Of a DNA stretch of 10,797 nt, positions 1,900 through 4,874 are shown in pieces. This DNA comes from Rhodocyclaceae bacterium (GTDB taxonomy: Bacteria; Pseudomonadota; Gammaproteobacteria; Burkholderiales; Rhodocyclaceae): NCBI GenBank assembly GCA_027325905.1, contig DAIEEM010000120.1, forward strand, positions 1 to 10,797, given 5' to 3'. The notes beneath the pieces were generated by a model. That model was not told where the DNA came from. It did no database searches and saw only the letters and a program-made list of their open reading frames with translations. The position numbers were made by a program, and so were the translations under genes. Each line of letters opens with the position of its first letter. Position 1 is the stretch's first letter.

Positions 1900-3876
1900 A
1901 TGAAGAGTCTTTGGCAGGACGCCGACGCGAAGGCCTGCGGCAACGATCTGCAACTACGCGTATACACGTCGCGCCTGCTCGGCCGCGACAAATCGCTGGT
2001 GTTGCATGGCGGCGGCAATACGTCGGTCAAGATCGCCGAGAAGAACCTGTTCGGCGCGGAGGAGGAAGTCCTCTACGTCAAAGGCAGCGGCTGGGATCTC
2101 GAAACCATCGCCGAAGCGGGCTTCGCGCCCGTGCGTCTCGATCACTTGAAGAGACTCGCCGCGCTGCCGGCGCTTTCCGATCCGGAGATGGTGAACCAGC
2201 TCGTCACCCACCAGACGCGCGCCGCCGCGCCGGTACCGTCGGTCGAGGCGATCCTGCACGCGATCCTGCCCTATCGCTTCGTCGATCACACGCACGCCGA
2301 CGCCGTCGTCACGGTCACCAACACGGCCGACGGCGAGGCGCGCATCCGCGCCATCTACGGCGACAAAGTCGTCGTCGTGCCCTACGTGATGCCGGGCTTC
2401 GACCTGGCGCGGCTCTGCGCCGAGCGCTTCGCCGCCGCGGCCGGACCGCAGACCGTCGGCATGGTGCTGCTGAACCATGGCATTTTCAGCTTCGGCGACA
2501 CGGCGCAGGAATCCTACGAACGCATGATCGCGCTGGTGGGCCAGGCCGAAAGCTATTTGCAGGAACATAAGGCATGGCACGTGTCGCTGCCGGCTGCGGC
2601 GCCGCTGCCGGCTGCGGCCGTCGTCCGCGACCTGGCGCGGCTGCGCGCCGACATCTCGGCCGCCGCCGGCGCCCCCATGATCGTCGCCCGCCACACCGGC
2701 GGCAAGTTCCTGGCTTTCGCGCAACGCGGCGACGTCGCGACGCTCTCGCAGCAAGGGCCGGCCACGCCCGACCACGTCATCCGCACCAAGCGCCTGCCGC
2801 TGCTGGGCCGCGACGTCAAGACCTATAGCGAAGACTATCGCGCCTACTTTTCCGCCCACGAGCCGCAGGCGAAGGACCGCAAAACCATGCTCGACCCAGC
2901 GCCGCGCGTCGTGCTCGATCCCGCGTTCGGCCTCTGTGCCGCCGGCCGCAGCGCCCAGGACGCGGCCATCGTCGCCGACATCTACGGCCATACCGTCGAC
3001 ATCATCCTCGGCGCCACGGCGCTCGGCGGCTACCGGGCGCTGCCGGCGCGCGACATCTTCGAGGTCGAATACTGGGATCTCGAACAGGCGAAGCTGAAGA
3101 AAGGCGGCAAGCCGCCCGCTTTCGCCGGCGAGGTCGCCCTGGTCACCGGCGCCGCCTCCGGCATCGGCAAGGCTTGCGTCGACGCGCTGATGGCGCGCGG
3201 CGCGGCCGTGGTCGCGCTCGACCTGCAAGCGGCGATCTCGACGCTCTCGGACAAGGCGAACTTCCTCGGCATCCAATGCGACGTCGCCGATGAAGCGCAG
3301 CTCCAGGCGGCGATCGCGCGGGCGGTGGAGAAGTTCGGCTGCCTCGACATGCTGGGGCTCAACGCCGGCATCTTCCCCGGCGGTTGCCGCATCGAAGCGC
3401 TGCCGACGGCGGACTGGCAGCGCGTCATGCGCATCAACCTCGACGCCAACCTCGTGCTGATGCGCGAATGCCATCCCTTCCTCAAGCTGGCGCCGCGCGG
3501 CGGCCGCGTCGTCGTCATCGGCTCGAAGAACGTGCCGGCGCCGGGGCCGGGCGCCGCCGCCTATTCCGCATCGAAGGCGGCGCTCAACCAGTTGGCGCGC
3601 GTCGCCGCGCTGGAATGGGGCGGCGACAACATCCGCATCAACTCGCTGCATCCGAATGCCGTGTTCGACACCGGCATCTGGACCGAGGAAGTGCTGGCCT
3701 CGCGCGCCAAGCACTACGGCCTGACGGTCGACGAATACAAGCGCAACAACGTGCTGAAGACGGAAGTGACGAGCCGCGACGTCGCCGAACTGGCGGCGGA
3801 GCTCTGCGGTCCGCTGTTCGCCAAGACCACCGGCGCGCAGATTCCCGTCGATGGCGGCAACGACCGCGTGATCTAG
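1900..3876 (+). CDS. Bifunctional class II aldolase / short-chain dehydrogenase fusion (RhaEW/YuxG-like)
   Basis: The protein has 658 residues. The N-terminal class II aldolase domain (about 1-225) has the phosphate-binding loop HGGGNTS (36-42), a probable catalytic Glu116 in SVEAILH, metal ligands in HTHAD (His130, His132) and His193 in NHG. A linker region (about 225-405) follows, typical of these fusions. The C-terminal SDR domain (about 408-658) has TGAASGIG (416-423), NAG (488-490), catalytic Ser542, and Tyr555/Lys559 in YSASK. Asp441 at the end of the second strand suggests NAD(H) rather than NADP(H). Both halves keep their active-site residues. Characterised relatives cleave rhamnulose 1-phosphate to DHAP plus lactaldehyde and then oxidise or reduce the aldehyde. 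No rhamnose genes are visible here; the convergent neighbour is mtnA, so a methylthioribulose or 5-deoxyribulose 1-phosphate substrate is a serious alternative (inference). The fold is secure and the substrate uncertain. The stop shares CTAG with the mtnA stop. Confidence 0.9.
   Translation: MKSLWQDADAKACGNDLQLRVYTSRLLGRDKSLVLHGGGNTSVKIAEKNLFGAEEEVLYVKGSGWDLETIAEAGFAPVRLDHLKRLAALPALSDPEMVNQLVTHQTRAAAPVPSVEAILHAILPYRFVDHTHADAVVTVTNTADGEARIRAIYGDKVVVVPYVMPGFDLARLCAERFAAAAGPQTVGMVLLNHGIFSFGDTAQESYERMIALVGQAESYLQEHKAWHVSLPAAAPLPAAAVVRDLARLRADISAAAGAPMIVARHTGGKFLAFAQRGDVATLSQQGPATPDHVIRTKRLPLLGRDVKTYSEDYRAYFSAHEPQAKDRKTMLDPAPRVVLDPAFGLCAAGRSAQDAAIVADIYGHTVDIILGATALGGYRALPARDIFEVEYWDLEQAKLKKGGKPPAFAGEVALVTGAASGIGKACVDALMARGAAVVALDLQAAISTLSDKANFLGIQCDVADEAQLQAAIARAVEKFGCLDMLGLNAGIFPGGCRIEALPTADWQRVMRINLDANLVLMRECHPFLKLAPRGGRVVVIGSKNVPAPGPGAAAYSASKAALNQLARVAALEWGGDNIRINSLHPNAVFDTGIWTEEVLASRAKHYGLTVDEYKRNNVLKTEVTSRDVAELAAELCGPLFAKTTGAQIPVDGGNDRVI
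2586..2618 (+). repeat. Tandem 15-bp repeat (18-bp period) inside the aldolase-dehydrogenase gene
   Basis: GCTGCCGGCTGCGGC occurs at 2586-2600 and again at 2604-2618, encoding LPAAAP-LPAAAV (about residues 230-240). It falls where the aldolase domain ends, so it probably forms a flexible Ala/Pro linker that grew by slippage. It keeps the reading frame. Confidence 0.7.
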
Positions 3877-4874
3877 TCCGGTTTGAGCCCGGCGAGTTCG
3901 TGCGCCGGTCGCAGATCGCGCTCGGTGACGATGCCGGCGATCAGCGCCGCCGGCGTCACGTCGAACGCCGGATTGGCGACCTTGCTGTCGATCGCGCCGA
4001 ACTCGTCGACGCTGCGCTCCTCGATGGGAATCGCCGCGCCGTCCGGACAGGCGAAATCGATGGTGGAAACCGGCGCCGCGACGTAGAACGGCACCTCATG
4101 CGCTTGCGCCGCCAGCGCCTTGAGATAGGTGCCGACCTTGTTGGCGGTGTCGCCGTTGGCGGCGATGCGGTCGGCGCCGACGATGACGCAATCGACCTTG
4201 CCTTGCATCATGAACAAGCCCGCGGCGTTGTCGGCGATCACGGTGTGCGGAATGCCCGCCTGCCTGAGTTCCCAGGCCGTCAGCAGGCCCTGGTTACGCG
4301 GGCGGGTTTCGGAGACCCAGACATGCACCGGGATGCCGGCGGCGTGCGCCGCGTAGATCGGCGCGATGGCGGTGCCGTGCGCCACGGTCGCCAGCCAGCC
4401 GGCGTTGCAGTGGGTCATGACTTCCACGCGTCCCTTGCGCGCGGCAATGGCGCGCAGCGCCGGCAAGCCGTTGGCGCCGATGGCGGCGTTGGCGGCCTCG
4501 TCTTCGCGGGCGATGGCGCGAGCTTCGCGCCACGCCGCCTGGCGACGCGCGGCGGCGGCAAGCGGCGCCAGTACGGCGCTCATGCGCGCCAGGGCCCAGT
4601 GCAGATTCACCGCGGTCGGTCGCGTGGCGCCGAGGACTTCGAGAACATGAGTCAGGCGCGCATCGTCCGCCGCCGCGCCAAGGCCGAGGGCGACGCCGTA
4701 GGCCGCCGTGGCGCCGATCAGCGGCGCACCGCGCACCTGCATGACGCGGATGGCGTGGGCCACCTCCTCGAGATTCGTCAGTCGGACGAAAGCCGTCTCG
4801 CGCGGCAGTTGCGTCTGGTCGAGGACGACGACGGCATCGCCATCCTCCTGGATCGTGCGCAGCGGGTAAGTCAT
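3873..4874 (-). CDS. mtnA: S-methyl-5-thioribose-1-phosphate isomerase
   Basis: MtnA isomerises 5-methylthioribose 1-phosphate to 5-methylthioribulose 1-phosphate in salvage of 5'-methylthioadenosine, the by-product of polyamine and quorum-signal synthesis; it also acts on 5-deoxyribose 1-phosphate. The protein has 333 residues, near full length. Family motifs are RGAPLIGATAAYG (49-61), RPTAVNLHWAL (85-95), MTHCNAG (153-159) with the conserved active-site Cys156, and GADRIAANGDTANKVGTY (233-250) with the conserved Asp235. The start at 4874 (MTYPLRT...) is chosen because the longer open frame upstream would run into secA and shows no similarity to the family. mtnA begins 7 bp after the secA stop on the same strand, so it is probably read through from secA; the ribosome binding site is weak. 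No mtnP, mtnK, mtnB, mtnC or mtnD lies in the window. Its only metabolic partner here is the convergent aldolase-dehydrogenase. Confidence 0.93.
   Translation of the reverse strand: MTYPLRTIQEDGDAVVVLDQTQLPRETAFVRLTNLEEVAHAIRVMQVRGAPLIGATAAYGVALGLGAAADDARLTHVLEVLGATRPTAVNLHWALARMSAVLAPLAAAARRQAAWREARAIAREDEAANAAIGANGLPALRAIAARKGRVEVMTHCNAGWLATVAHGTAIAPIYAAHAAGIPVHVWVSETRPRNQGLLTAWELRQAGIPHTVIADNAAGLFMMQGKVDCVIVGADRIAANGDTANKVGTYLKALAAQAHEVPFYVAAPVSTIDFACPDGAAIPIEERSVDEFGAIDSKVANPAFDVTPAALIAGIVTERDLRPAHELAGLKPD

What the first reader, a model, noticed from the sequence alone, without database searches (positions are those of the whole stretch)
1900..4874. Aldolase-dehydrogenase fusion facing mtnA: candidate fused DHAP shunt for methylthioadenosine or 5'-deoxyadenosine salvage
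Seen: a class II aldolase and an SDR, both with intact active-site residues, on one polypeptide, directly tail to tail with mtnA. Known: in the DHAP shunt (Rhodospirillum rubrum, some E. coli), MtnA makes 5-(methylthio)ribulose-1-P or 5-deoxyribulose-1-P, a class II aldolase splits it into DHAP plus methylthioacetaldehyde or acetaldehyde, and a separate dehydrogenase reduces the aldehyde. Inference: here the last two steps are fused, so the reactive aldehyde could pass straight to the SDR. RhaEW-type fusions are known for rhamnulose-1-P, so the fold is not new, but the mtnA link suggests another substrate. The methylthioethanol product could feed sulfur recovery through a methylthio-alkane reductase.
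Basis: partly seen in the sequence, partly recalled or inferred. Interest (0 to 1): 0.72.

Follow-up and report, generated by a model that had tools for sequence, protein, structure and literature searches.

The report
Fused aldolase-dehydrogenase for methylthioadenosine salvage
A two-headed bacterial enzyme that databases label as a rhamnose enzyme sits where the aldolase of a known recycling route for S-adenosylmethionine waste normally sits, so it most likely cuts that waste sugar and then processes the reactive aldehyde itself.

Summary
A 658-aa class II aldolase-SDR fusion (1900-3876 +) meets mtnA (4874-3873 -) tail to tail, overlapping by 4 bases. It is not a RhaEW: it matches NCBIfam NF006196 (substrate unspecified), scores below the RhaEW cut-off, and rhaI-linked RhaEW form a separate branch. 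Comparative evidence strongly supports the DHAP-shunt reading. Five other loci carry one-strand operons fusion-mtnP-apt-mtnA (one with the fusion cut by the contig end). In the window's order, mtnA stands beside either this fusion family (19 of 42 copies examined) or a standalone FucA/Ald2-like aldolase (19 of 42), never both at one locus. In a same-family genome, secA-mtnA is followed by the Ald2-like gene; in the window, the fusion stands there. Acireductone dioxygenase is over cut-off in 0 of 12 fusion genomes of the order sample; no RhaI-type isomerase was found in them. So the fusion is best read as a replacement DHAP-shunt aldolase carrying its own aldehyde dehydrogenase. Substrate and redox direction were not assayed. 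RhaEW oxidises, but lacks the SDR tetrad Asn that this group keeps. Linkage is strong in Betaproteobacteria, nearly absent elsewhere. No paper I could search describes it; the key 2020 survey (North et al.) was not held.

The parts
1900..3876 (+). bifunctional class II aldolase / short-chain dehydrogenase (658 aa), NF006196 family; proposed DHAP-shunt aldolase fused to aldehyde dehydrogenase
1960..2556 (+). class II aldolase domain (PF00596)
   Evidence: coordinates, 81.4 bits; E116, H130, H132, H193 invariant 38 of 38; fold match 3m4r
2557..3132 (+). middle region without a Pfam match, predicted helix/strand domain
3133..3858 (+). SDR domain, NAD(H)-type Asp441 and N-S-Y-K tetrad (N513, S542, Y555, K559)
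3873..4874 (-). mtnA, S-methyl-5-thioribose-1-phosphate isomerase, tail to tail with the fusion (4-base overlap 3873-3876)
4882..7608 (-). secA (name recognised by eye); the mtnA of this family is anchored behind it also in a relative without the fusion

Best explanation
The fusion is the aldolase of a DHAP shunt with its aldehyde-processing dehydrogenase attached. MtnP (or another route such as nucleosidase plus kinase) makes 5-methylthioribose-1-P or 5-deoxyribose-1-P. MtnA isomerises it to the ribulose-1-P. The aldolase head splits that into DHAP and methylthioacetaldehyde or acetaldehyde. The SDR head then converts the aldehyde with NAD(H). Apt, where it is in the operon, recovers the adenine. 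Shown by sequence: domains, residues, operons, exchange with an Ald2-like aldolase, absence of competing marker genes in relatives. Inferred: substrate, redox direction, any channelling of the aldehyde.
For: (1) Operons on one strand, fusion-mtnP-apt-mtnA: L004, L074, L173, L175, and L181 (fusion cut by the contig end); fusion-mtnP in L007; apt-fusion-mtnA in L016 and L034. (2) Slot exchange: of 42 mtnA copies examined from the 100-genome order sample, 19 stand beside a fusion-family aldolase and 19 beside a standalone FucA/Ald2-like aldolase, 0 beside both, 4 beside neither. The 23 copies without a fusion were fetched before I looked for an Ald2-like gene there, and 19 of 23 have it (one weak, 71 bits). 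mtnP-ald-apt-mtnA operons: L188, L213; with extra genes between L210, L220, L201. G020 (same family): secA-mtnA-ald; window: secA-mtnA facing the fusion. (3) Fusion-family genes are paired with mtnA from both main parts of the MtnA tree: 8 of 24 rows in the window's part, 34 of 44 in the rest; 10 label changes, at least 7 forced by starred branches (one search shows the tree). (4) 11 of 12 full-length fusions of the order sample lie within 2.6 kb of mtnA. (5) mtnA in 56 of 59 fusion genomes (54 over cut-off), MTAP in 49 of 50 (41 over cut-off), ARD over cut-off in 8 of 50, RhaI strong in 3 of 63. (6) The fusion is the only PF00596 protein found in the window's genome (59% complete). (7) Nine standalone partners scanned are nearest FucA but below its cut-offs; none reaches the MtnB cut-off; one matches 6btd at 166 bits, which I recall to be DrdA.
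Against: No assay. Outside Betaproteobacteria the linkage is rare: 0 of 10 gammaproteobacterial and 1 of 16 cyanobacterial loci, so there the role rests on co-occurrence only. No mtnP was found in the window genome (59% complete). In six genomes read, the aldolase stands beside mtnA with a decayed (5) or missing (1) SDR domain (judged by eye), so the SDR step is dispensable. 8 of 50 fusion genomes also have ARD over cut-off. G070 and G117 keep both kinds of aldolase at separate loci. In G002 the fusion has no mtnA in reach (mtnA at the edge of another contig), and shorter family members lie far from mtnA in G092 (47 kb) and on another contig in G080. Linkage could partly reflect inheritance of one operon, though the window's secA-anchored mtnA is from the other part of the tree.
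Confidence: 0.84

Rival explanations
1. It is a RhaEW: L-rhamnulose-1-P aldolase fused to L-lactaldehyde dehydrogenase, as public records name it.
For: Same architecture and overall homology, 30-36% identity to three rhaI-linked RhaEW; TIGR02632 matches at 452.9 bits; many database names say RhaD.
Against: 452.9 is under the TIGR02632 cut-off 567.75, while NF006196 scores 1101. Three rhaI-linked RhaEW form a separate branch with other active-site letters (RPGF, HPD, CPDH against MPGF, HAD, TPDH). RhaI in 0 of 13 order genomes searched. No rhamnose genes seen next to the fusion in the window.
Confidence: 0.05
2. It works in the pathway, but the SDR head oxidises the aldehyde to an acid (methylthioacetate or acetate) with NAD+, rather than reducing it to an alcohol. 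(A sub-question of the best explanation, not an alternative to it.)
For: RhaEW of Chloroflexus converts the aldehyde to acid with NAD+ and shows no activity with NADH (PMC3870299, passages). Asp441 fits NAD(H) and the S-K-N...Y...K site is shared with RhaEW.
Against: RhaEW lacks the SDR tetrad Asn in 3 of 3 rows, whereas this group has it in 38 of 38, so the chemistry may differ. In R. palustris the shunt product seen is 2-(methylthio)ethanol (PMC5893883, passages).
Confidence: 0.45
3. The fusion serves an unrelated DHAP aldol cleavage (another 1-phosphorylated deoxyketose) and lies beside mtnA by accident.
For: Homologous fusions stand in other settings: a UgpC/glycerol-3-phosphate dehydrogenase operon in Rhizobium (L190), rhamnose operons; aldolase-only homologues in lsr (AI-2) operons.
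Against: Repeated linkage to mtnA, mtnP and apt and alternation with an Ald2-like gene.
Confidence: 0.06
4. The aldolase head acts as an MtnB-like dehydratase feeding classical methionine salvage.
For: MtnB is of the same superfamily and also uses the MtnA product.
Against: ARD over cut-off in 0 of 12 fusion genomes of the order and in 8 of 50 others; a fused aldehyde dehydrogenase would make no sense there.
Confidence: 0.03

Closest known systems
DHAP shunt (MtnP or MtnN+MtnK, MtnA, Ald2/DrdA; Rhodospirillum rubrum, R. palustris, ExPEC E. coli, Bacillus thuringiensis)
   Same: Same upstream enzymes (mtnP, mtnA, also apt) in the operon; a class II aldolase in the same slot; DHAP plus aldehyde expected
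   Different: The aldolase is a distant family (PRK08324.2-4) with a middle region and a fused SDR; in the described shunts the dehydrogenase is separate and putative or generic (PMC5893883, PMC10986504, passages)
RhaEW (L-rhamnulose-1-P aldolase/L-lactaldehyde dehydrogenase)
   Same: Same domain order, homologous over the whole length, aldolase step yielding DHAP plus a small aldehyde
   Different: Separate branch, different active-site letters, SDR tetrad Asn kept, mtn instead of rha neighbours
NCBIfam NF006196 (PRK08324.2-4), bifunctional aldolase/short-chain dehydrogenase
   Same: Window protein is a full member, 1101.2 bits against 831
   Different: The model names no substrate; the DHAP-shunt role is what this report adds

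Membership tests
NF006196 bifunctional aldolase/SDR | score above curated cut-off 831 over full length | tested here: met
   1101.2 bits, profile 1-657 of 657
RhaEW | score above TIGR02632 cut-off 567.75 | tested here: not met
   452.9 bits
RhaEW | nests with rhaI-linked fusions | tested here: not met
   three rhaI-linked rows form one branch, SH-aLRT 100 (quick tree); long branches noted there
RhaEW | rhamnose isomerase/kinase in genome or neighbourhood | tested here: not met
   RhaI in 0 of 13 order genomes; window genome only 59% complete; rhaB not searched
RhaEW | activity on L-rhamnulose-1-P | not testable with these tools
   needs assay
DHAP shunt | class II aldolase with metal/catalytic residues | tested here: met
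   E116, H130, H132, H193 in 38 of 38; roles recalled
DHAP shunt | MtnA encoded with the aldolase | tested here: met
   window; 11 of 12 full-length fusions of the order sample
DHAP shunt | MtnP or MtnN+MtnK present | tested here: inconclusive
   no MtnP found in the 59% complete window genome, MtnN and MtnK not searched; mtnP next to the fusion in L004, L007, L074, L173, L175, L181; MTAP in 49 of 50 fusion genomes
DHAP shunt | cleavage of 5-methylthioribulose-1-P or 5-deoxyribulose-1-P to DHAP | not testable with these tools
   needs assay
classical methionine salvage (MtnB-MtnD) | acireductone dioxygenase present | tested here: not met
   0 of 12 fusion genomes of the order over cut-off
classical SDR | Gly-rich NAD motif and N-S-Y-K tetrad | tested here: met

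The most novel reading that the evidence does not exclude
A second, self-contained form of the DHAP shunt exists in which aldol cleavage and aldehyde disposal share one polypeptide. It takes the place of Ald2 in many Betaproteobacteria and is the unrecognised aldolase step in a share of cyanobacteria, gammaproteobacteria, Verrucomicrobia and Chloroflexi that hold mtnP and mtnA but no known next enzyme. In several lineages its SDR half has since decayed, leaving an aldolase.
Probability: 0.55. Interest if true: 0.72.

Novelty: new variant of a known kind. Interest (0 to 1): 0.64.

Why it matters
In the described DHAP shunt the aldehyde is passed to a putative alcohol dehydrogenase (PMC5893883, passages). 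This fusion names a candidate for that step and shows how a reactive aldehyde could be handled at source. It corrects a widespread rhamnose annotation. [quoted passage not shown] In my sample 87 of 96 cyanobacteria have an MTAP match and 16 of 96 an ARD over cut-off, while 10 of 96 have this fusion over cut-off, so it could answer the question for some, not most. The strains of that paper were not checked.

Tried and rejected
Phylogenetic exclusion of fusion and ARD in cyanobacteria: not informative, since ARD is rare there (over cut-off in 16 of 96; among the 10 fusion carriers in 2, G157 at 99 bits and G116 at 41 bits).

Neighbour clustering over all loci was swamped by spurious reverse-frame ORFs; only targeted searches were used.

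Neighbouring mtnA as proof by itself was not enough, because the window's mtnA is a secA-anchored gene that exists without the fusion in a relative (G020). The Ald2-like gene behind that mtnA turned this into evidence.

Limits of the counts. At least one genome occurs twice under two handles (G011 = G138; L172 lies in L008). In one search, 12 of 106 loci were left out as fragments or near duplicates (94 rows kept). In some searches, short duplicate loci were left out (68 rows kept). Trees are quick ones with SH-aLRT only. The 19 fusion-side loci were mostly fetched because fusion and mtnA were already known to be close. The change count first seen treated secA-linked copies as another group; one search repeats it with one label.

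Literature: searches (listings, with passages read and one section in 63) showed no paper linking a fused aldolase-SDR to MtnA; the survey by North et al. 2020 (PMC7237333) is not held and may mention it.
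Full report
Observation. The window holds, in order, a transketolase-domain gene (dxs), folE2 (GCHY-1), the fusion, mtnA, and then secA, an M23 peptidase gene, a DUF721-type gene, lpxC and an ftsZ end (dxs and the names after mtnA are recognised by eye, not from a family scan). 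The fusion runs from 1900 to 3876 on the + strand; the frame opens further upstream, but the 120 relatives listed are 648-675 aa, mostly 657-658. mtnA runs from 4874 to 3873 on the - strand. The two genes overlap by 4 bases. The aldolase and SDR domains are both real and their key residues are conserved in 38 of 38 relatives, except Tyr555 in 37 of 38. The AlphaFold2 model is confident (pLDDT 88.2); the best PDB matches are the aldolase 3m4r and many SDRs.

Which family. NCBIfam calls it NF006196, 'bifunctional aldolase/short-chain dehydrogenase', at 1101.2 bits (cut-off 831). The RhaEW model TIGR02632 gives 452.9, below its cut-off of 567.75. I fetched fusions that stand beside rhaI in Rhizobium, Deinococcus and Rhodococcus; these three form one branch of their own (SH-aLRT 100) in a quick tree of 94 fusions, and they differ at aldolase positions that the mtn-linked rows keep: RPGF against MPGF, DHxHPD against DHTHAD (one mtn-linked row has DHTHAV), CPDH against TPDH. 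Public names nevertheless often say 'rhamnose utilization protein RhaD'.

Neighbourhood. In 80 fusion loci from public genomes (the best 80 of 583 confirmed matches), mtnA or mtnP lies within 2.6 kb in 25 of 80, and in 20 of the 56 that have at least 2.6 kb on both sides. By class (from record titles), among the 61 loci that are linked or have room: Betaproteobacteria 19 of 20, unclassified Pseudomonadota 5 of 6, Gammaproteobacteria 0 of 10, Cyanobacteriota 1 of 16, all others 0 of 9 (counting linked loci regardless of room favours linkage slightly). In 100 genomes of the window's order, 12 have a full-length fusion over cut-off and 11 of these 12 have mtnA within 2.6 kb; in the twelfth, G002, mtnA lies at the edge of another contig. 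Operons on one strand in the order fusion-mtnP-apt-mtnA stand in L004, L074, L173 and L175, and in L181 with the fusion cut by the contig end; L007 has fusion-mtnP; L016 and L034 have apt-fusion-mtnA. That is the set of enzymes needed to turn MTA into AMP (through adenine), DHAP and an aldehyde.

The slot. The strongest finding came from genomes without the fusion. Their mtnA is accompanied by a standalone aldolase of about 212 aa. Nine of these were scanned: NCBIfam places them nearest FucA but below its cut-offs, and none reaches the MtnB cut-off; one matches 6btd, recalled as DrdA of Bacillus thuringiensis, at 166 bits. Of 42 mtnA copies examined from the order sample (60 of 100 genomes have an mtnA match), 19 stand beside a fusion-family aldolase, 19 beside the Ald2-like gene (one of them weak, 71 bits), none beside both, 4 beside neither. 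The 23 copies without a fusion were taken without looking for that aldolase. In L188 and L213 the operon reads mtnP-ald-apt-mtnA, so the same gene set as the fusion operon with the aldolase exchanged; L210, L220 and L201 hold the same genes with others between. G117 and G070 hold both kinds at separate loci. In G020, of the window's own family, secA-mtnA is followed by the Ald2-like gene; in the window, L002 and L005, secA-mtnA faces the fusion instead.

Repeated pairing. A quick tree of 68 MtnA sequences has two main parts. The window's MtnA belongs to a well-supported part of 24 rows of which 8 are fusion-linked; of the other 44 rows 34 are fusion-linked. The fusion-linked label needs 10 changes on the tree, at least 7 forced by starred branches. 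Tail-to-tail pairs like the window's also occur in two cyanobacteria, L035 and L148. Linkage was therefore gained or lost repeatedly, with distant mtnA genes as partners.

Genome background. mtnA: 56 of 59 fusion genomes, 54 over cut-off. MTAP: 49 of 50, 41 over cut-off; not found in the window genome, which is 59% complete. ARD, the mark of classical salvage: over cut-off in 0 of 12 in the order and in 8 of 50 fusion genomes of the other set. RhaI: 0 of 13 in the order; any match in 5 of 63, strong in 3, in loci titled Chloroflexales, Opitutae and Planctomycetota. The fusion is the only PF00596 protein found in the window genome.

The SDR half. Asp441 suggests NAD(H). Yet RhaEW lacks the SDR tetrad Asn in 3 of 3 rows while this group has Asn513 in 38 of 38, so that result may not carry over. 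In R. palustris the shunt yields 2-(methylthio)ethanol through a putative alcohol dehydrogenase (PMC5893883, passages). I leave the direction open. In five genomes of the order (G035, G014, G062, G048, G039) the aldolase beside mtnA carries an SDR that by eye is decayed, and in G090 (395 aa) the SDR is gone; three of them were scanned and match NF006196 best, below its cut-off (L182, L183, L186). The aldolase is thus the part kept next to mtnA, and the SDR can be dispensed with.

Verdict. What is not shown is the substrate, the redox direction, channelling and any sulfur recovery step. Novelty: a new variant of a known pathway. Literature searches showed no description, but the main 2020 survey (North et al., Mol Microbiol) is not in the library.

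Noticed in passing
L182, L183, L184, L185, L097, L186: Fusion-family aldolases next to mtnA whose SDR half looks decayed (no intact Gly motif or Tyr-Lys, by eye) or is wholly absent (L186): a graded loss of the dehydrogenase.
   Followed up: partly
L047 7965-9968: The fusion frame is split by an in-frame stop between the aldolase part (404 aa) and the SDR part (263 aa); a natural two-gene version or a sequence error.
   Followed up: no
window 2557-3132 (residues 220-410): Middle region without a Pfam match whose predicted strand-strand-helix order (337-374) repeats that at the end of the aldolase domain (187-222): possibly a second, degenerate aldolase half.
   Followed up: no
L193 5926-7167, L195 6001-7251: Aldolase-only relatives (38-43% identical) at the end of lsr (autoinducer-2) operons in Alloyangia and Sinorhizobium.
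   Followed up: no
L190 6001-8049, L197 6001-8049: Rhizobium fusions of another subfamily; L190 stands in an operon with UgpC-type transport and glycerol-3-phosphate dehydrogenase, L197 near an iron-containing alcohol dehydrogenase and a solute-binding protein; substrate unclear.
   Followed up: no
L187 6704-12304: A cyanobacterium (G216) has mtnA next to a fusion of a different subfamily (NF006192, 1177 bits), with mtnP close by on the other strand: another fused candidate for the same pathway. This genome also has ARD.
   Followed up: partly
L207 2947-6257: Operon mtnP-apt-mtnA followed by a standalone SDR, with no aldolase found in the stretch.
   Followed up: partly
cyanobacterial genomes: 87 of 96 have an MTAP match but only 16 of 96 an ARD over cut-off and 10 of 96 this fusion: most cyanobacteria sampled lack both of these enzymes after MtnA.
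   Followed up: partly
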